Assembly (NCBI GenBank): GCA_021824145.1 | Contig: JAKALM010000006.1 | Coordinates: 1 to 64,000, forward strand | Length of the DNA stretch: 64,000 nt | Direction: 5' to 3' | DNA from: Bacteroidota bacterium | GTDB taxonomy: Bacteria > Bacteroidota > Ignavibacteria > Ignavibacteriales > Ignavibacteriaceae | In this document: piece by piece, positions 50,421 to 61,174 of the stretch | How positions within the stretch are numbered: position 1 is the first letter of the stretch | Layout of the letters: every line of letters begins with the position of its first letter | Position numbers and translations under genes: made by a program | Notes under the pieces: model-generated | Told to the model about the DNA's origin: nothing | What the model saw: the letters and a program-made list of their open reading frames with translations, nothing else | Databases searched by the model: none

Positions 50421-50598
50421 TTTTTAGCTCTTACTCTATAAAATATTTTGAGTGTTTAATTTAATAATCAAATAAATTAGTGAAAAAAAATTACCTTATA
50501 ACGAATAATCAATAATTATAAATTAGATTTATCGATTAAGACCTTTATAATTATTGAATTTAGTTATGAAATTATATAATTTTTTCATCAAAATTTTT

Positions 50599-50605
50599 AG
50601 GAGGA
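50599..50605 (+). promoter_or_regulatory. SD-like AGGAGGA with no canonical start behind it
   Basis: AGGAGGA lies 60 bases before the likely start of sprA. Five bases later comes ATA (50611), in the sprA frame, but TAA at 50641-50643 stops it after ten codons. No ATG, GTG or TTG lies in any frame at a proper distance. See the sprA entry. Confidence 0.4.
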
Positions 50606-50664
50606 AGAATATAGATACTTTTTACAATAATTATTGTTTGTAATATTTCCATCAGAGAAGCCAT

Positions 50665-53600
50665 ATTAATCGTAAAATATTAAAATTAAGTTGGGAGATT
50701 GCCCGAATAATTATTTTTGCCGTAATTTTATTTTACGCTGCAATAAATGTTGGTTTCCTTCCACCAGTTGACCCACAAATTAATCAAAGCATTTGGGTAA
50801 ATGCTTTTTTCCAATATTATCATCATTTAGACGAATTACATGAAAAGTCTCAGCTTTATTCTGGTAATAAATCAAATTCATTCTCTAATGGGAAAAATGG
50901 AATTCCATTTATGGCTCCAGAAGCAATTCAGGCTGATTCACTGAAAGAAAACAAAAATTTAACAAATAATTTATCACTGGCTTCAGATACATTAAAAAAA
51001 GATTCATTATCGGCTTTAAGAGATACAACTAAATTGGATTCGATGTCGATTGACTCAACAGCAAGATTAAAATATTTTAAATATGAAAGAAAAGATGTTC
51101 CTTATGTTCAGTTAAATCTTCAAAATGAATCTAGTTTCTTCGCACAGCCATCGGCTAATGTAGTTACGAGAAATATTTCGATTGATTCAACTGGTAAATT
51201 TGTAGAGATAAAAGAATTAGTTGGCGGAAGACAAACTAAAATACTTTTACGAATGCCAATTGATGAGTATATAAAATTAAAACTTGCACTTAACGAAGAA
51301 CAGCTTTGGGATCAATTAACTGGTGGGTATGAACTAAAAAGTTCAAAAAAAGAACTAGGCCAGCTAATTAAAGATATTACTAATTTAGAGATTCCGCTTC
51401 CTAGTGTTGGTGTATTAAGTATTTTTGGAAAGCCAAAAATCAGTTTACGAATTGGCGGAGCTGTTGATATACATGGTGCATGGAGAAATGAAACAACGCA
51501 AGGTGTAACAGCTTCGCTCCTTGGAAACACGAGAAATGAACCCGATTTCAAACAACAAGTTCAAATAAATGTTAATGGAACAATTGGTGATAAATTAAAT
51601 ATTGCCGCTGATTGGAATACCGAACGAACATTCGAATATCAAAATCAACTTCATATTAAATATACCGGCTATGAAGATGAAATTGTTCAAAGTGTAGAAG
51701 CTGGTAACGTTTCTTTGCAAGCTTCACCGCTTGTAGGCGGAAGCGAAGCTTTATTTGGAATTAAAGCAGAGCTCAAACTTGGCCCATTATCTCTTACAAC
51801 ACTTGCCAGCCAGAAAAAAGGAGAGGTAAAAGAAGTTTCTGTAAACAGTGGTGCAACTTCTCAAACTTTTTCAATTCGTGCTTATAATTATGCTACAAAC
51901 AATTTCTTTATAGATACATTATATGCAAGTACGGATCCAAATCTAAATTTATTTTATAATTATTATGGCAGTTCGTTTCCAACAGCAAATCCAAATTATA
52001 ACGTAAACTATATTGAAGTATGGAAATCAGTTAACACTCAGACAATTGATAAATCTAGAGAAAGACAGGTAAATGCTTATTTAAATTTACCTCCTATGGC
52101 TAAATCATCAGATCCTAATTTAATTTATTCAGGCAATTGGAGCAGTGATACTGTAAATCCAATTCCAGGACAAATTGAAACTGGAAGATTTATTCTGCTT
52201 CAACCAGATGTAGATTACACAGTTCATCCGGAAACTGGTTATATTACGTTTAATACTCAAATTCAAGATCAGGATGCGATTGCAGTATCTTATGTTATGC
52301 AAGGTTCGTCGGAAAGAATATATTATGGCGAATCATTAGCAGCTGCCGGTGCTGTAACAAGTTCAGATTCAACAAGAAGATTAGTGCTAAAACTAATTAA
52401 ACCTGCTTATCTAAAACCTCAATTTACACAAGCATGGAAACTTTTGTTGAAAAATATTTATCCCGTTGGAGGAACAAATATTAAGCAAGATGGATTTGAT
52501 CTTCAAGTAAAATATGAAGTACCAGGAGCCGATCCTGTAACCGTATATCCAAATGGCAGTCAACAGGTTCAGTTGCTTAATGCATTTGGATTAGATAAAT
52601 TTGATGCAAGCGGGAATGCAAATCCAGATGGAATTTTTGATTGGAAACCTCAAATTACAGTTTTACCAACTGCTGGCGAAATTATTTTCCCAACACTTGA
52701 ACCATTTGGTAAAAATCTTCCTAAAACTTTACCGGATTCAATATCTTATCAAACGGTTTATGATACTACTCAAAATTATGCTCAGCAAGATAAAGCACAT
52801 GATAAATGGGAAATTACAGGTAAATATTCTGGTGAAGCGACATCAGTCTATCAACTTGGATTTAATGTTGTAGAAAACTCAGTAAGAGTAACTTTGAACG
52901 GAAAAGAACTTGCTGTAAACACCGATTATACAGTTGATTATAATATTGGTCAGTTAACAATTTTGAATCGTGATGCTTTGGTTCCGGGTGCAGATTTAAA
53001 AATAACATATGAACAAAATGACCTTTTCACACTTGCATCTAAAACTCTTCTTGGTTTACGAGGTATTGTTAATATTTCGGATAAGACAAAATTAGGTTTT
53101 TCTTTACTGAATCTTAATCAACAAACTTTAAGCGACAAGGTAAGAATTGGTGAAGAACCGTTGAGTAATACGATAATGGGAGTTGATTTCAGCACTGGCG
53201 GAGATCTTCCATTTTTAACAACAGCATTAGATCATGTAATTTCTACAAAGCAAATGTCTAGTTTTTCTCTTGCCGGTGAATTTGCTTATATGAAACCAAA
53301 CCCAAATACTAAAACAAGCACCATACCTGATGACAACGGGCAGAGCATAGCTTATATTGATGACTTTGAAGGAGCGAAAAAATTAATTCCAATTGGTGTT
53401 TCATATACTTCTTGGAAAGATTTAAGTGCACCAGATTCTCTTGCTGCTTTTGCAGATTCCAATTATAGCTCAGGTGAATATTATAAAAATCTTATGAGTT
53501 ATAAAGGTAAAGCTTGGTGGTATTCCATAACTCCTTCTAATGTTTTGGTTCCACAAATATGGGGAACTAGAAAAAAAGTTGCTACGCAAGATCAACAAGT

Positions 53601-56600
53601 TCCTGTAATGGATTTTGTATTTGATCCCGATACGCCAGGGACTTACAATTTAAATCCAAAATTGAAAGCAAATCCCAAAGCAAATTGGGGTGGAATGATG
53701 AAAGTTCTTTCAGGAACTGCGAATGATTTACAAGCACAAAATATTCAATACATTGAGTTTTGGCTGAATGAACAGCAAGTTCCGAGCAATGGGAAAATTT
53801 ATATCGATCTTGGTAGAATTAGTGAAGATGTTATTCCAAACAGAATTTTAGACACTGAAGATAAGAATAATAATGGTGTAATTGATCCTGGTGAAGATGT
53901 TGGTATTGACGGTATGAATGATGAACAAGAAAGAGCTTATGCAAAATCTATGGGATATTATACTTGGACTAAAAGTGATCCGGCAGGCGATGATTTTTCT
54001 CTTGGCTCGCTAACATCTGGAGATATTTGGAATTATTTTAATATTAATGGTACCGAAGGTAATGCTGTTAATTATGATCTTGGGAGAATACCAGATACTG
54101 AAGATTTAAACTACAATGGAAATCTTGATCTTATCAATAGTTATTTTAGATATGAAGTTCCTTTAGATACAAATGAAATTAAGCAGAGAAATTTACTTGC
54201 TGGTGGTGGCGATCAATCCTCACAGCTGCAAAATAAATGGTATTTAATAAGAATTCCTTTGCAAGATACTGCTTTAACTGTTGGCAATCCTTCTTTATCA
54301 GACGTTGAATATATAAGAATTTTTACAACTGGTGTTGATTCAATTATGCACTTGAGGCTTGCAGAGTTTAATCTTGTTGGAAATCAATGGCAGCAAGCTT
54401 TGCCTTATGATACCGTAATGTCAGTTTCGGTAATAAATATTGAAGACAATCCAAATTATTCCATGCCTCCTGGAATAAGCCAAGAAAGAGATCACAGTCA
54501 ACCGGATCAGAATGTTTATTTAAATGAACAATCAATGGATTTAATTCTTAAAGGATTAGAGCCTGGCGATAAACGTGAAGCAGTAAAATATTTGTACAGG
54601 CCAGTTGATGTTTTCAATTACAGTGCAATGAAGTTTTTTATTCATGGTGATGATACTCCAGGTGCATCAATAACAGATACAACCGGAGGCCAATATCCTG
54701 CTCAAGTTTATTTTAGATTTGGTTCCGACACAAATAACTTTTATGAATATCGCCAACCGGTTCAAAAAGGTTGGAATGATGTAAATATAGTTTTTAATAA
54801 ACTGACAGCGATAAAACAGAGTTTAGATTCAGCACAGCAAAAATCTGTTTATTATGTCCCAGTTGAAGGAGAACCAGGCCACTTTTATGGTGTTAAAGGT
54901 AATCCAACTTTAACTTCTGTTAAATTTTTAACTGTAGGAATTGTGAATGTAACAGATCAGGCAAAATTCCCCAAACCAATTTCTGGTGAAGTTTGGGTTG
55001 ATGAATTAAGAGTTGTAGGTGCCGATAATCATCCAGGCTGGGCGTATAGTATTGCAACGTCTTTAAAGCTAGCTGATCTAATGAATATTAATTTTAATAT
55101 GAGTCAAACCGATCCATATTTTCACAGATTGTCAGATCAATTCGGCTCCAGAATAGACACAAAAAATTGGAACTTATCTGCCGATATGGATATAATGAAA
55201 TTAATTCCTCTTAATTTACCGGGAAGCACTTTAAGAATAAGTTACTCACATACAGAATCGATTGGTAAACCACTTTATCTTCCTGGCACCGACGTGCTTG
55301 TTACCGAAGCTGCAGCAAGGGCTGATAAGGACACAATACCAGGACACATGACGGGTAATCAAATAATTTCCAATTCTCAGACAATAAATATTTCAGATTC
55401 TTGGTCAGCTTCAAATATTGCTTTGCGAATTCCAACATCATCTTGGATTTTGCAAAATACAATCAATGCACTTTCACTTGGGTTTAATTACAATAAAACT
55501 TTTAGCCGAAATCCAACTACATTATCAAATAAAATGTGGGTTTGGAATGCCAATTTGAATTATGGTATTAACTTTAGTCCGGATGATTATTTTTATCCTG
55601 CTAATATTCCAATTATAGGTACTTTATTAGGTTTTCTAAAAGATTATAGAAACTTAAAAATTTATTACGCACCGCAAAATTTTTCATTCCAAATATCTGC
55701 AAGAAGAAATCGATCCATAATGGTGTACAGGCAAGTTGGCAGTTCACCTGTACAGGCAATTCCTTCTCACGATTTTTCTACAACAAGAGGTTTTAATTTC
55801 GGATGGAAACTTACAGATGGAGGTTTTCTAAATTTAACTACTAATTATAATGTACAGGTTAATTCTTCCTTAGCTTACTTGGAAGCAGATGACAATAATA
55901 ATTTTATTCCGGAGAGCCAAATCTGGAGAGAAATTTTTGCAGGCAATTTCTTCGGAAGAGATTTTCAGTATCAGCAAAACATTGATTTCCGAACCAATCC
56001 AAAACTTCCTAGCATTTGGAATATCGAAAGATTTTTTAGCTTATCTGCTAGTTATTCAGTAGGCTATCAATGGAATAATCAATTCAGCCAAAAAGTAAAT
56101 GGATTAGATGCCGGAAGAAGTGCTGGCTTTACAAATAAATCTCAAATTGGATTTAGGTTAGCATTAAAATCAATTATGGATCCTATATTTGCCGAGAATG
56201 ATAACCAATCCAAAGAAAATCAAAACCAAAATAATTTTGAAAATAACCGCGAAAGAAATTTTAACCAAAGCTTTGAAAAAAATAAGCAGAATGAAAACAA
56301 CAATATTAAAACAGAGAAAGATACAACTTCAAAACATGATTCATTAGCAACAACACTTACAGCGAAAAAATTTCAATTTAAAAATGCATTGTTATTTTTA
56401 AAATCTTTTGCCAAGATTATTTTATTTGATTACGAAAATATTAGCATAAACTTTTCTAACGATAACAACGTTTCAAAATCAGCTTTGAAAGCAGGAGGTA
56501 CTGGTTTTGGAAATTTCTGGGGGTTAACATATAAAGAAAATAATGGGCCTTCAAGATTATTTATGCTTGGGCTAAGTTCCGATGTTGGCTTAAGAACTCC

Positions 56601-57633
56601 AAACCTTGGAAGTTTGACTGATGTATTTTCACAAAGAAATAATTTGGATATGCAAACTTCTAGGCCGCTTTGGGAAGGCGCCAAAATTGATCTATCATGG
56701 AAACTTGGCTGGACAATAAATAAAAGCTCAACTTTCCAATCAGATGCTATAGGAAATATTGTGTCAACTATTCAGCCTAATGAAACTGGTTCCATTTCCA
56801 GATCATTTTTCACTTTACCTCCAATTTTTATTTTTAGCATTTTCAAGAGCGGAATTAAAAGAGTAAGCGAACTTTACGATCCAAATTCACCAGATCCTCA
56901 GGGAAGCTTATCGCAAGCTTTTGTTCAAGGATTTGAATCGCTGCCTTTGCTATCTAGATTTAGTTTCTTAAAAGATTTTGCTAATTATATTCCCAGGCCA
57001 AACTGGACGATTTCGTGGGATGGTTTAGAAAAATATTATCCGTTTAAATCTATTGCCGAAAGAGTGTCTCTTGATCATTCTTATTCTTCAACTTATACTG
57101 AAGGCTGGCAGATAAGCACCGATGGAAAGAGAATGGTTCAAACGCAAAGAATAGATTACGGATTTCAACCTTTGGTCGGTTTGAATATGACATTTGCAAA
57201 ACTTTGGGAAGGAAATTTAAGTGGAAGTATAAAATATTCTGTAAGAGAAAGTTATGATTTAGGTTTGAGTACTCAAAATATTTCAGAGTCTTTTTCCAAA
57301 GACATCGGAATTTCTGCTTCTTATTCTAAAACAGGATTTGAAATACCAATCTTTGGACTTGCATTAAAAAATGATATAGAGTTTACATTCTCTTATACTA
57401 ACAGTCAGTCTACAACTGTTACTTATGATATGAATCATTATGTTGATGGTGGAACTCCTACAGATGGTACAAGCAGAGTAACTATTGAGCCGCGGGTAAA
57501 ATATACAATTAGTTCAAAAGTTACATTAGCTGTATTCTATACGCGTTCAACTGTCGAGCCGGTTGGTGCTTCAAGAATTCCGCCTACAACCACAAACGAA
57601 GCCGGTTTGGATGTTCATATTGCTATTCAATAG
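50665..57633 (+). CDS. sprA: Type IX secretion outer-membrane translocon SprA/Sov, non-canonical start
   Basis: About 2320 aa, the giant beta-barrel through which type IX cargo crosses the outer membrane. Typical passages: FGKPKISLRIGGAVDIHG near the N-terminus, NIAADWNTERTFEYQNQ, GGSEALFGIKAELKLGPL, AYIDDFEGAK and VWVDELRVVG, with many barrel strands to the C-terminus. The first ATG in frame is 50911, but the frame is open upstream to a TAA at 50641 and encodes a membrane/signal segment (IARIIIFAVILFYAA) with the expected early SprA residues PPVDPQINQSIWVNAF. Starting at 50911 would remove the signal. No ATG, GTG or TTG occurs in this 5' stretch; ATT 50665 (giving MNRKILKLSWE) and ATA 50677 are candidates. 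porX follows. Confidence 0.9.
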   Translation: MNRKILKLSWEIARIIIFAVILFYAAINVGFLPPVDPQINQSIWVNAFFQYYHHLDELHEKSQLYSGNKSNSFSNGKNGIPFMAPEAIQADSLKENKNLTNNLSLASDTLKKDSLSALRDTTKLDSMSIDSTARLKYFKYERKDVPYVQLNLQNESSFFAQPSANVVTRNISIDSTGKFVEIKELVGGRQTKILLRMPIDEYIKLKLALNEEQLWDQLTGGYELKSSKKELGQLIKDITNLEIPLPSVGVLSIFGKPKISLRIGGAVDIHGAWRNETTQGVTASLLGNTRNEPDFKQQVQINVNGTIGDKLNIAADWNTERTFEYQNQLHIKYTGYEDEIVQSVEAGNVSLQASPLVGGSEALFGIKAELKLGPLSLTTLASQKKGEVKEVSVNSGATSQTFSIRAYNYATNNFFIDTLYASTDPNLNLFYNYYGSSFPTANPNYNVNYIEVWKSVNTQTIDKSRERQVNAYLNLPPMAKSSDPNLIYSGNWSSDTVNPIPGQIETGRFILLQPDVDYTVHPETGYITFNTQIQDQDAIAVSYVMQGSSERIYYGESLAAAGAVTSSDSTRRLVLKLIKPAYLKPQFTQAWKLLLKNIYPVGGTNIKQDGFDLQVKYEVPGADPVTVYPNGSQQVQLLNAFGLDKFDASGNANPDGIFDWKPQITVLPTAGEIIFPTLEPFGKNLPKTLPDSISYQTVYDTTQNYAQQDKAHDKWEITGKYSGEATSVYQLGFNVVENSVRVTLNGKELAVNTDYTVDYNIGQLTILNRDALVPGADLKITYEQNDLFTLASKTLLGLRGIVNISDKTKLGFSLLNLNQQTLSDKVRIGEEPLSNTIMGVDFSTGGDLPFLTTALDHVISTKQMSSFSLAGEFAYMKPNPNTKTSTIPDDNGQSIAYIDDFEGAKKLIPIGVSYTSWKDLSAPDSLAAFADSNYSSGEYYKNLMSYKGKAWWYSITPSNVLVPQIWGTRKKVATQDQQVPVMDFVFDPDTPGTYNLNPKLKANPKANWGGMMKVLSGTANDLQAQNIQYIEFWLNEQQVPSNGKIYIDLGRISEDVIPNRILDTEDKNNNGVIDPGEDVGIDGMNDEQERAYAKSMGYYTWTKSDPAGDDFSLGSLTSGDIWNYFNINGTEGNAVNYDLGRIPDTEDLNYNGNLDLINSYFRYEVPLDTNEIKQRNLLAGGGDQSSQLQNKWYLIRIPLQDTALTVGNPSLSDVEYIRIFTTGVDSIMHLRLAEFNLVGNQWQQALPYDTVMSVSVINIEDNPNYSMPPGISQERDHSQPDQNVYLNEQSMDLILKGLEPGDKREAVKYLYRPVDVFNYSAMKFFIHGDDTPGASITDTTGGQYPAQVYFRFGSDTNNFYEYRQPVQKGWNDVNIVFNKLTAIKQSLDSAQQKSVYYVPVEGEPGHFYGVKGNPTLTSVKFLTVGIVNVTDQAKFPKPISGEVWVDELRVVGADNHPGWAYSIATSLKLADLMNINFNMSQTDPYFHRLSDQFGSRIDTKNWNLSADMDIMKLIPLNLPGSTLRISYSHTESIGKPLYLPGTDVLVTEAAARADKDTIPGHMTGNQIISNSQTINISDSWSASNIALRIPTSSWILQNTINALSLGFNYNKTFSRNPTTLSNKMWVWNANLNYGINFSPDDYFYPANIPIIGTLLGFLKDYRNLKIYYAPQNFSFQISARRNRSIMVYRQVGSSPVQAIPSHDFSTTRGFNFGWKLTDGGFLNLTTNYNVQVNSSLAYLEADDNNNFIPESQIWREIFAGNFFGRDFQYQQNIDFRTNPKLPSIWNIERFFSLSASYSVGYQWNNQFSQKVNGLDAGRSAGFTNKSQIGFRLALKSIMDPIFAENDNQSKENQNQNNFENNRERNFNQSFEKNKQNENNNIKTEKDTTSKHDSLATTLTAKKFQFKNALLFLKSFAKIILFDYENISINFSNDNNVSKSALKAGGTGFGNFWGLTYKENNGPSRLFMLGLSSDVGLRTPNLGSLTDVFSQRNNLDMQTSRPLWEGAKIDLSWKLGWTINKSSTFQSDAIGNIVSTIQPNETGSISRSFFTLPPIFIFSIFKSGIKRVSELYDPNSPDPQGSLSQAFVQGFESLPLLSRFSFLKDFANYIPRPNWTISWDGLEKYYPFKSIAERVSLDHSYSSTYTEGWQISTDGKRMVQTQRIDYGFQPLVGLNMTFAKLWEGNLSGSIKYSVRESYDLGLSTQNISESFSKDIGISASYSKTGFEIPIFGLALKNDIEFTFSYTNSQSTTVTYDMNHYVDGGTPTDGTSRVTIEPRVKYTISSKVTLAVFYTRSTVEPVGASRIPPTTTNEAGLDVHIAIQ

Positions 57634-57765
57634 TTCATCTGTTTTTATTTTCAATCACAAATTATTATTTGTTAATGAAACTGCTAATTGAACAATTTAT
57701 ATTTAGAAGTAGGATTTAAAATGATTAATAAAGAAAACATTCAAAGGGCAAAAGGAAATGAAACC

Positions 57766-59334
57766 ATGAAAGGGAAAAAAATACTTTGGGTTGATGATGA
57801 AATTGAATTGTTTAGATCGCATATAATTTTTTTATCTGAAAAAGGCTATGAAGTAGACACAGTAATGAACGGGGAAGACGCAGTTTCATCTGTTCAAGAA
57901 AATGATTATGATTTAATCTTCTTAGATGAAATGATGGCTGGCATTGGAGGCCTTGAAACGCTTGGAAGAATTAAAGATATCAATGCAAACATTCCTGTAG
58001 TAATGATAACTAAAAGCGAAGAAGAAACTTTAATGGATGAAGCAATTGGCGGTAAAATTGCTGACTATTTAACAAAACCAGTAAATCCTAGCCAAGTTCT
58101 TTTAGTATGTAAAAAAATTCTAGAAGGTAAAAAAATTTCTGGTCAATATGCTGCAAAAGATTATTTACAGGACTTCAATGAAATCTCAAGAGCATTTTTA
58201 AATGAAATGGATTTTGCAGAGTGGATTGAAATTTATCTAAAGCTTGTAAATTGGGATGTTGAACTTGATTCTCATCCAGGGATTGATCTTCGCCAAACTT
58301 TGTACGACCAAAAAAGAGAAGGGAATAAAGAATTCTCAAAATTTGTTGAAAAGAATTACCGGCAGTGGATTACATCTATTGGCGATGAATATACACCAAC
58401 ACTTACAACTGAGATTGTTCCTAAATATGTTTTACCGCATTTAGAAGATCCAAAATCATCTGTGTTTTTCTTTGTAATTGATTGTTTACGTCTCGATCAA
58501 TGGCTGATGATGGAAAAGCATTTGCTTGATTTATTCAAGATAGAAAAAGATTATTATTATGCTATTTTGCCAACTGCAACACCATACGCTAGAAACGCGT
58601 TGTTCAGTGGATTGTTTCCATCTGAAATTGAAAAACATTATCCTCAACTCTGGAGTTCAGGTGATGATGATGAGAATAGCATGAATAAATATGAAAAAGA
58701 ATTACTTCAGTTTTTATTGGATAGAAAAAAAATAAAATTAAGAAATGAATTGAAGTATATAAAAATTATAGACCCTGAAGTGGGCAGAAATTTTGAACAA
58801 AATATTTTGTCATATCAGAATACTCAACTGACTGCTGTGGTTGTTAATTTCTTGGATATGATAGCTCACGGTAGATCTGATTCTGATTTGTTAAAAGAAA
58901 TTGCACCGGATGAAGCGGCGTACAGATCGTTAACAAACACTTGGTATACTCATTCATCGTTATTGGCAACATTTAAGGCGCTTTCACAAATAAAAAATGC
59001 TAAAATTATTATTACCACAGATCATGGAAGTATCCGTGCATTAAGAGGCGCAAAAGTTTTAGGCGATCGCGAAGCATCTTCAAATTTGCGATTTAAGTTT
59101 GGAAGAAATCTTAAGGTTGATGAAAAACATGCAGTATATATTAAGAATCCAGAAGACTTTAAACTTCCAAAACGCGGAGTAACAATTAATTATATTATTG
59201 CTAAAGAAGATTATTATTTTGTATATCCTACAGATTATCATAAATATTTAACTTATTATAAAGATACCTTTCAGCATGGCGGAATATCAATGGAAGAAAT
59301 GATATTGCCGGTAATTACAATGGAGCCTAAATAA
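57766..59334 (+). CDS. porX: PorX-type response regulator with PglZ/alkaline phosphatase-like effector
   Basis: 522 aa from ATG 57766 (AAGGA upstream); longer starts at TTG 57688 or ATG 57721 add an unconserved extension. The receiver (about 1-120) begins KKILWVDDE, with phospho-acceptor Asp54 (IFLDEMM) and Lys in LTKPVNP. The C-terminal PglZ-type domain (about 190-515) has VIDCLRLDQW and TTDHGS metal ligands. PorX controls type IX secretion in Porphyromonas gingivalis and its relatives; here it lies 132 bases after sprA and just before tsaE. There is no porY kinase in the window. Confidence 0.93.
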   Translation: MKGKKILWVDDEIELFRSHIIFLSEKGYEVDTVMNGEDAVSSVQENDYDLIFLDEMMAGIGGLETLGRIKDINANIPVVMITKSEEETLMDEAIGGKIADYLTKPVNPSQVLLVCKKILEGKKISGQYAAKDYLQDFNEISRAFLNEMDFAEWIEIYLKLVNWDVELDSHPGIDLRQTLYDQKREGNKEFSKFVEKNYRQWITSIGDEYTPTLTTEIVPKYVLPHLEDPKSSVFFFVIDCLRLDQWLMMEKHLLDLFKIEKDYYYAILPTATPYARNALFSGLFPSEIEKHYPQLWSSGDDDENSMNKYEKELLQFLLDRKKIKLRNELKYIKIIDPEVGRNFEQNILSYQNTQLTAVVVNFLDMIAHGRSDSDLLKEIAPDEAAYRSLTNTWYTHSSLLATFKALSQIKNAKIIITTDHGSIRALRGAKVLGDREASSNLRFKFGRNLKVDEKHAVYIKNPEDFKLPKRGVTINYIIAKEDYYFVYPTDYHKYLTYYKDTFQHGGISMEEMILPVITMEPK

Positions 59335-59765: not shown

Positions 59766-60435
59766 ATCTGGACCAATATTATCCATTGAAACATCCGAAA
59801 GTATTTGTGGTGCTTGCATATATTTTGACGACAAAAAATATTTTGAAGCAATTACTCATCTAAAAAACTCACACGCAGAAAAGTTATTTGAAACGATAGA
59901 TTATGTAATTAAAACTTCTCAAATTGAAATAAATGAATTAAAAGCAATAGCAGTTTCTGCCGGTCCTGGTTCTTTTACGGGTTTACGAATTGGAATGTCT
60001 GCTGCGAAGGGAATTGCTTTTGGTTCTTCTTTGCCAATTATTCCTGTTCCAACATTTGAAGCATTAGCTTTACAGCTTTCAAACATTTTTGAAGATGATT
60101 CAGAATTTATAATTGCTAATAGAGTTAATTTGGAAGAGATATATTTTGCTAAGTTTCAAATTAAGGCTAATAATTATATATTTGCAGATAAATTAAGGAT
60201 AGTGGATTACCCTGAATTTCGAAAATTAAGCAAGAATGGAATTGTATTTGGAAATGTCAATCTGGAAAATAAAATTGAAATGAAGGAACTAAAGAAAAAT
60301 ATCGCTTCTCCATCTCCAGTATTTGTGGCAAAATGGGGGAAAATTTATGGCGATGATTTGATGACTTATAATTATGATTTTCTTGAGCCAAACTATTTGA
60401 AAAATTTTATTATTAAGGAAAGAAAAAATGATTAA
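59758..60435 (+). CDS. tsaB: tRNA t6A biosynthesis protein TsaB
   Basis: 225 aa. ASKHA-fold, non-catalytic partner of TsaD. ILSIETSESICG at the start, SHAEKLFETIDYVI and VSAGPGSFTGLRIGMSAAKGIA are classical. I choose ATG 59758 (MNESGPILSIET) over a longer TTG/ATG start inside tsaE. It overlaps the DUF1573 gene by 8 bases at its end. Confidence 0.93.
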   Translation: MNESGPILSIETSESICGACIYFDDKKYFEAITHLKNSHAEKLFETIDYVIKTSQIEINELKAIAVSAGPGSFTGLRIGMSAAKGIAFGSSLPIIPVPTFEALALQLSNIFEDDSEFIIANRVNLEEIYFAKFQIKANNYIFADKLRIVDYPEFRKLSKNGIVFGNVNLENKIEMKELKKNIASPSPVFVAKWGKIYGDDLMTYNYDFLEPNYLKNFIIKERKND

Positions 60436-61174
60436 TAAAATTTTTTTAATTATTGCTTTCTTTTCATGCCTAATCATAGGACAATCAGTTGGACCGATAG
60501 TTACCATACCTCAAATAAATTATAACTTTGATTATGTACCCATTGATTCAAGTTTAGGCCATACATACATGATTTATAATGGCGGAGGTGGTGTTCTAAA
60601 ATTATGGGACGTTTCAACAACTTGTAAATGTATAACTGCTACATTAGATAAAAGTACACTTACCCCTACAGATTCAGCTAGGCTTGATGTTAGCTATACC
60701 AACGTTAAAAATTCTCAAGGTTTAGATAAATATATTTCAATCAAGACAAATGATCCGAATAATCCAAATGTAAGAATTTATATTACTCGCGTAATAAATA
60801 ATTCACCTACATTAGCATCTATGCCGAAAGATTCAATTGGAGAAAATTCATCTGCTGTACCGGTAATTTATTTTCCCGTTGATGAACATAATTTTGGTAA
60901 GATAAAACAAGGGACTATTGTTAGCTATACGTTTAAGTTTATGAACAAAGGTAAATCAACTTTGAAAATAAAAGATATAACAACATCATGCGGATGCACA
61001 GCAGCGCTGGTAAAAGATAAAGAAATAGCTCCAGGCAAAGAAGGTGAACTTGCAGTTCAGTTCGATTCTAATGGTAAAATTGGAAAACTATCAAGAAAAA
61101 TTACAATTCTGTCGAATGATCCCAAACAATCTTATAAAGTTTTAACTATTTATGCCGATGTAGAGAATAATTAG
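60428..61174 (+). CDS. DUF1573 protein, two tandem domains, secreted
   Basis: 248 aa. Signal peptide about 1-18. Two immunoglobulin-like DUF1573 units (about 22-120 and 145-245), each with the pair-of-cysteines turn CKC or CGC (STTCKCITA and TTSCGCTAA) and a closing TNDPNNP or LSNDPKQ loop. The family is common in Bacteroidota and is probably periplasmic or cell-surface; function is unknown. It overlaps tsaB and is followed 73 bases later by accD. Confidence 0.9.
   Translation: MINKIFLIIAFFSCLIIGQSVGPIVTIPQINYNFDYVPIDSSLGHTYMIYNGGGGVLKLWDVSTTCKCITATLDKSTLTPTDSARLDVSYTNVKNSQGLDKYISIKTNDPNNPNVRIYITRVINNSPTLASMPKDSIGENSSAVPVIYFPVDEHNFGKIKQGTIVSYTFKFMNKGKSTLKIKDITTSCGCTAALVKDKEIAPGKEGELAVQFDSNGKIGKLSRKITILSNDPKQSYKVLTIYADVENN

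What the first reader, a model, noticed from the sequence alone, without database searches (positions are those of the whole stretch)
50599..50911. sprA lacks any ATG, GTG or TTG start
The in-frame open region from 50644 to the first ATG (50911) encodes the needed signal segment and conserved SprA residues but has no standard start codon. ATT 50665 would give an MNRK... start. An SD at 50599 leads only to an ATA frame that stops after ten codons. An essential secretion pore with a rare AUU/AUA start would be translated at low rate and may be regulated like infC.
Basis: partly seen in the sequence, partly recalled or inferred. Interest (0 to 1): 0.65.

Follow-up and report, generated by a model that had tools for sequence, protein, structure and literature searches.

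The report
Secretion gene with conserved AUU start
Across a whole order of bacteria (Ignavibacteriales), the gene for the giant type IX secretion pore SprA has kept an isoleucine codon (AUU/AUC, rarely AUA) where its start codon should be, the trait known from the initiation factor 3 gene infC, and it carries an undescribed conserved leader just upstream.

Summary
From the in-frame TAA (50641) to ATG 50911 the sprA frame holds no ATG, GTG or TTG. In 60 Ignavibacteriaceae genomes the sprA start is best assigned to ATT (41), ATC (18) or ATA (1), usually behind an AGG/AAGGG Shine-Dalgarno (SD) sequence; no ATG is assigned. Single-contig genomes agree. In two further families of the order, 38 of 41 assignments are ATT/ATC/ATA, some doubtful. 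A parsimony count gives at least 23 changes among these three codons. Controls: the neighbouring porX has ATG in 28 of 28 genomes; infC, the textbook AUU/AUC gene under IF3 autocontrol, starts ATC/ATT/ATA in 23 of 23 readable genomes, including this one. Substitutions downstream of the codon favour third positions (39:17:83), so the frame is coding from there. I found no conserved RNA fold. Best reading: AUU/AUC initiation limited by IF3, plus a leader of unproven function (ribosome site, protein site or promoter).

The parts
50577..50584 (+). TAnnTTT-type -7 promoter box (TAATTTTT), putative main promoter; transcript start inferred near 50590
   Evidence: TAnnTTT lies within 60 nt upstream of SD1 in 90/96 loci, mostly at -18 to -32, against 20/96 in a control stretch; promoter type from general knowledge of Bacteroidota
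50599..50604 (+). SD1, AGGAGG
   Evidence: GGAG core 83-99% per position over 101 loci; duplex with anti-SD -10.2 kcal/mol
50610..50615 (+). A-block TATAGA, containing ATA 50611-50613 (AUH1)
   Evidence: consensus TAT[A/C]GA; codon ATA 63, ATC 24, ATT 3, ATG 0 of 101
50611..50643 (+). possible 10-codon upstream reading frame (ATA ... TAA); translation unproven
   Evidence: median 8 codons, length and phase vary between species
50619..50625 (+). T-block TTTTTAC (consensus UUU[C/U]UAC)
   Evidence: final TAC 98-99% over 101 loci
50654..50657 (+). SD2, weak AGAG in this genome; AGG/AAGGG in most relatives
   Evidence: duplex -2.9 kcal/mol here
50665..50667 (+). proposed sprA start codon ATT
   Evidence: homologous codon assigned ATT 41, ATC 18, ATA 1 of 60 in the family
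50665..57633 (+). sprA coding sequence, 2322 residues
   Evidence: TIGR04189 1066.6 bits; PF14349; third-position bias of substitutions from the ATT on
57766..59334 (+). porX, T9SS response regulator with PglZ domain; ordinary ATG start, used as negative control
   Evidence: NF052313 718 bits; ATG in 28/28 relatives

Best explanation
sprA is translated from a near-cognate AUU codon at 50665 (AUU/AUC, rarely AUA in relatives), selected by a downstream SD (SD2). Selection keeps it out of the AUG class. Because IF3 destabilises 30S complexes on AUU/AUC/AUA, translation of this very large outer-membrane pore should be held low and tied to IF3 level, as for infC. Shown here: conservation of the codon class, coding downstream, strong conservation of the leader. 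Inferred: actual initiation there, IF3 sensitivity, low output. The leader (SD1, AU[A/C]GA, UUU[C/U]UAC) is my best guess for a second 30S binding site (standby, decoy or minimal leader frame) that tunes access to the AUU; that step is weakly supported.
For: 60/60 Ignavibacteriaceae and 38/41 other loci of the order are best assigned to ATT/ATC/ATA; at least 23 changes among the three codons on the tree; homologous ATT/ATC in single-contig genomes (L020, L023, L043, L050, L084); first canonical codon lies more than 40 codons downstream in 17/60; substitutions by codon position 39:17:83; porX 28/28 ATG; infC ATC 20, ATT 2, ATA 1; leader identity 0.79-1.00 against 0.32-0.98 further upstream, higher or equal in every pair; leader block in 101/106. 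IF3 repression of non-canonical starts: PMC5472188.
Against: No protein or ribosome data. The start picker gave ATT/ATC a small bonus. SD2 is weak in the window itself. 13/60 family members have a GTG, TTG or ATG upstream in frame and 12/60 a canonical codon within 7 codons downstream, in the cases read by eye without an SD; L067, L077, L085, L088 and L100 are ambiguous or look like ATG. AUH1 prefers A/C whereas the sprA start prefers T, so AUH1 may not be an initiation codon.
Confidence: 0.72

Rival explanations
1. Sequencing or assembly error, or a decaying gene, removed an ATG.
For: The window comes from a fragmented genome of 37 contigs.
Against: An 87% identical relative and the rest of the family show the same lack, including single-contig genomes; the frame is open for 2322 codons.
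Confidence: 0.01
2. Translation starts at a downstream canonical codon (ATG 50911 here).
For: It is the first ATG, and gene finders would choose it.
Against: It would remove the basic and hydrophobic export segment and conserved residues; in L003 the first canonical codon is at codon 124; third-position bias shows coding upstream.
Confidence: 0.03
3. The SprA ribosome starts at an upstream site and reaches the frame by read-through or shifting.
For: In the window the ATA frame, and ATG 50571, are in phase with sprA across one TAA.
Against: Phase between leader and sprA is 0, 1 or 2 in relatives and stops intervene; no slippery site was noted.
Confidence: 0.02
4. The SD1 / TATMGA / TTTCTAC block is a DNA element (second promoter of an ECF-type sigma factor, or an operator), and only the AUU start acts in translation.
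For: Distance from GGAGG to TTTCTAC is fairly constant (12-14 nt in 84/96) while the middle block floats; no RNA fold or co-varying pairing.
Against: A main-promoter box lies just upstream, so the block is probably transcribed; the block varies like SD sequences (GAGG, GGAG); no regulon-like set of copies found in the own genome.
Confidence: 0.3
5. The block is a binding site for an RNA-binding protein or small RNA that controls sprA.
For: UAC and AU.G positions are nearly invariant irrespective of reading phase.
Against: No partner identified; an SD role is sufficient to explain part of it.
Confidence: 0.3

Closest known systems
infC (IF3) with AUU/AUC start and IF3 autocontrol
   Same: AUU/AUC/AUA class kept, AUG absent; SD close upstream; the same genomes show it for infC
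   Different: sprA does not encode the regulator, so no feedback loop; sprA carries an additional conserved leader
Streptomyces sigR, GTC start repressed by IF3 (PMC5472188)
   Same: a non-infC gene with a non-canonical start used for control
   Different: different codon, gene and phylum; IF3 control demonstrated there, not here
E. coli pcnB, AUU start (from general knowledge)
   Same: AUU start of a low-abundance protein
   Different: unrelated gene; depth of conservation not compared here
Leader reading frames with translational coupling
   Same: SD plus short frame ahead of the main gene
   Different: no canonical start; peptide, length and phase not conserved

Membership tests
Gene with a conserved non-canonical (AUH) start, infC-like | no ATG/GTG/TTG at the conserved start in the gene and its relatives | tested here: met
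   a few doubtful loci, mostly in the second family
Gene with a conserved non-canonical (AUH) start, infC-like | SD at working distance before the AUH codon | tested here: met
   AGG/AAGGG in most relatives; weak in the window itself
Gene with a conserved non-canonical (AUH) start, infC-like | coding from the AUH codon on | tested here: met
   39:17:83 substitutions by codon position
Gene with a conserved non-canonical (AUH) start, infC-like | expression rises when the codon is made AUG or IF3 is weakened | not testable with these tools
   needs an experiment
SprA/Sov T9SS translocon | match to the curated SprA model over most of its length | tested here: met
   TIGR04189 1066.6 bits, best stretch residues 512-2319
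Structured regulatory RNA (riboswitch-like) | conserved fold with compensatory changes | tested here: not met
   mean z about 0; no native excess of pairing after 24 tests; no Rfam match
Conserved leader peptide | conserved start, phase, length and peptide | tested here: not met
   phase and length vary, some frames are 1-3 codons
ECF-type promoter regulon | same motif before several genes of the genome | tested here: not met
   other pattern hits look like coding or unrelated stretches; sprA is the best model hit, the next far weaker

The most novel reading that the evidence does not exclude
sprA of Ignavibacteriales is controlled by a previously undescribed tandem initiation element: a strong SD with a near-cognate AUA/AUC codon that captures 30S subunits and gates a second near-cognate AUU/AUC start, making secretion-pore synthesis respond to IF3 or free 30S levels.
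Probability: 0.25. Interest if true: 0.75.

Novelty: new variant of a known kind. Interest (0 to 1): 0.62.

Why it matters
Few bacterial genes besides infC are known to keep a non-canonical start as a trait. An order-wide case in the central gene of a secretion system suggests that start-codon identity is used to limit or regulate a giant outer-membrane pore. It also implies that automatic annotation, which allows only ATG/GTG/TTG, would truncate the export signal of SprA throughout this group, and it offers an unexplained, sharply conserved leader for direct testing.

Tried and rejected
Sequencing error (rejected by relatives). Read-through or frameshift from the ATA frame or ATG 50571 (phase not conserved). 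RNA fold in the leader and long-range pairing between SD1 and the start region: no signal beyond what 24 tests would give by chance. Leader as Rfam family: none. Leader as multi-gene motif: other pattern hits in the genome look coding or unrelated. Literature searches for a described AUU start or leader of sprA found none in the held library; one query was malformed.

Full report
What is there. The sprA frame is open from 50644 to the stop at 57631-57633, with its first canonical start codon at ATG 50911. The residues encoded from ATT 50665 form a basic start followed by a hydrophobic stretch (NRKILKLSWEIARIIIFAVILFYAAINVGFLPP), what an exported outer-membrane protein needs. The protein is SprA/Sov, the T9SS translocon (TIGR04189 1066.6 bits; PF14349), followed by porX and preceded by a cupin gene and citrate synthase.

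Relatives. The window belongs to Ignavibacteriaceae (relatives named). sprA was found in 57 of 59 relatives, 71 of 80 genomes of the family and 136 of 146 of the order. I took the 5' region of 110 loci (106 after removing repeats). In all 60 Ignavibacteriaceae loci where leader and start could both be placed, the assigned start is ATT (41), ATC (18) or ATA (1); in 41 loci of two other families it is ATT 24, ATC 6, ATA 8, TTG 2, ATG 1. The picker favoured ATT/ATC by a small bonus, and several second-family calls (L077, L085, L088, L100) and L067 are ambiguous; L088 and L077 may truly use ATG. The family result does not hang on this: the usual picture is stop, AGG/AAGGG, 4-8 nt, ATY, AAA/AAT, with canonical codons further downstream (median codon 20; more than 40 codons in 17 of 60). 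Genomes in one contig (L020, L023, L043, L050, L084) agree, which excludes assembly error. On a quick tree at least 23 changes among ATT, ATC and ATA are needed, so the codon drifts within this class.

Controls. porX, the next gene, has ATG at the homologous place in 28 of 28 relatives. infC, the known IF3-controlled gene, starts with ATC (20), ATT (2) or ATA (1) in the 23 relatives where it could be read, including the window's genome (ATC, L246); seven loci were not readable by the script. Substitutions between sister species over the first 34 codons after the AUH are 39, 17 and 83 at codon positions 1, 2 and 3: coding from the AUH on.

The leader. The SD noted by the reader heads a conserved block: AGGAGG, 2-5 nt, TAT[A/C]GA, 3-5 nt, TTT[C/T]TAC, present in 101 of 106 loci. 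It lies 18-32 nt downstream of a TAnnTTT box in most species and ends a median 36 nt before the sprA start. The codon at SD distance is ATA 63, ATC 24, ATT 3 and never ATG; the remainder are not start-like (AGC, AAA, TTA and others). The strong preference for A/C and the invariant UAC irrespective of reading phase argue for a nucleotide signal rather than a peptide. No stable fold (mean z about 0) and no co-varying pairing were found. In the own genome sprA is the best match to the block (E 0.036, next 0.44), and the other pattern hits look coding or unrelated. Related blocks occur in several other families of the class (p about 0.016, the floor of the test, in 13 loci), not in the ten Bacteroidia loci tried.

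A sister family (f13). There the leader is present but several sprA genes start with ATG (L211, L222, L229), and the SD1 part (GAGTATCTTATC) is the exact reverse complement of the bases just before the ATG (GATAAGATACTC). This was read by eye and not tested statistically. It suggests that the element and the start region interact differently there.

Mechanism. Shown: conservation and coding. [quoted passage not shown] Inferred: sprA translation starts at AUU/AUC, is weak, and depends on IF3. The leader is best guessed to bind 30S subunits, but a second promoter or a protein site remain open.

Limits. No expression data; start positions are computational; the tree is a quick one on short stretches; literature was searched only in an open-access library.

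Noticed in passing
L211, L222, L229 (sister family f13 of the class): sprA starts with ATG there, and the leader GAGTATCTTATC is an exact reverse complement of GATAAGATACTC directly before the start; L200, L230, L231 show variants.
   Followed up: partly
L246 (own genome infC) and L237-L264: infC of Ignavibacteriales starts with ATC, rarely ATT or ATA, never ATG in 23 readable loci.
   Followed up: yes
L195 (class family f7), L198 (f10): Possible ATT starts of sprA behind AAGGG or AGGTGG outside the order; not tested.
   Followed up: no
G013:C1:1872267-1872290: A strong match to the sprA leader block away from sprA in a one-contig relative (E 0.027).
   Followed up: no
window 57688-57766: The listed porX frame begins at a TTG, but the conserved start is ATG 57766.
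   Followed up: yes
window 60428-61174: Protein matching the OS_HP2 family of (seleno)proteins.
   Followed up: no
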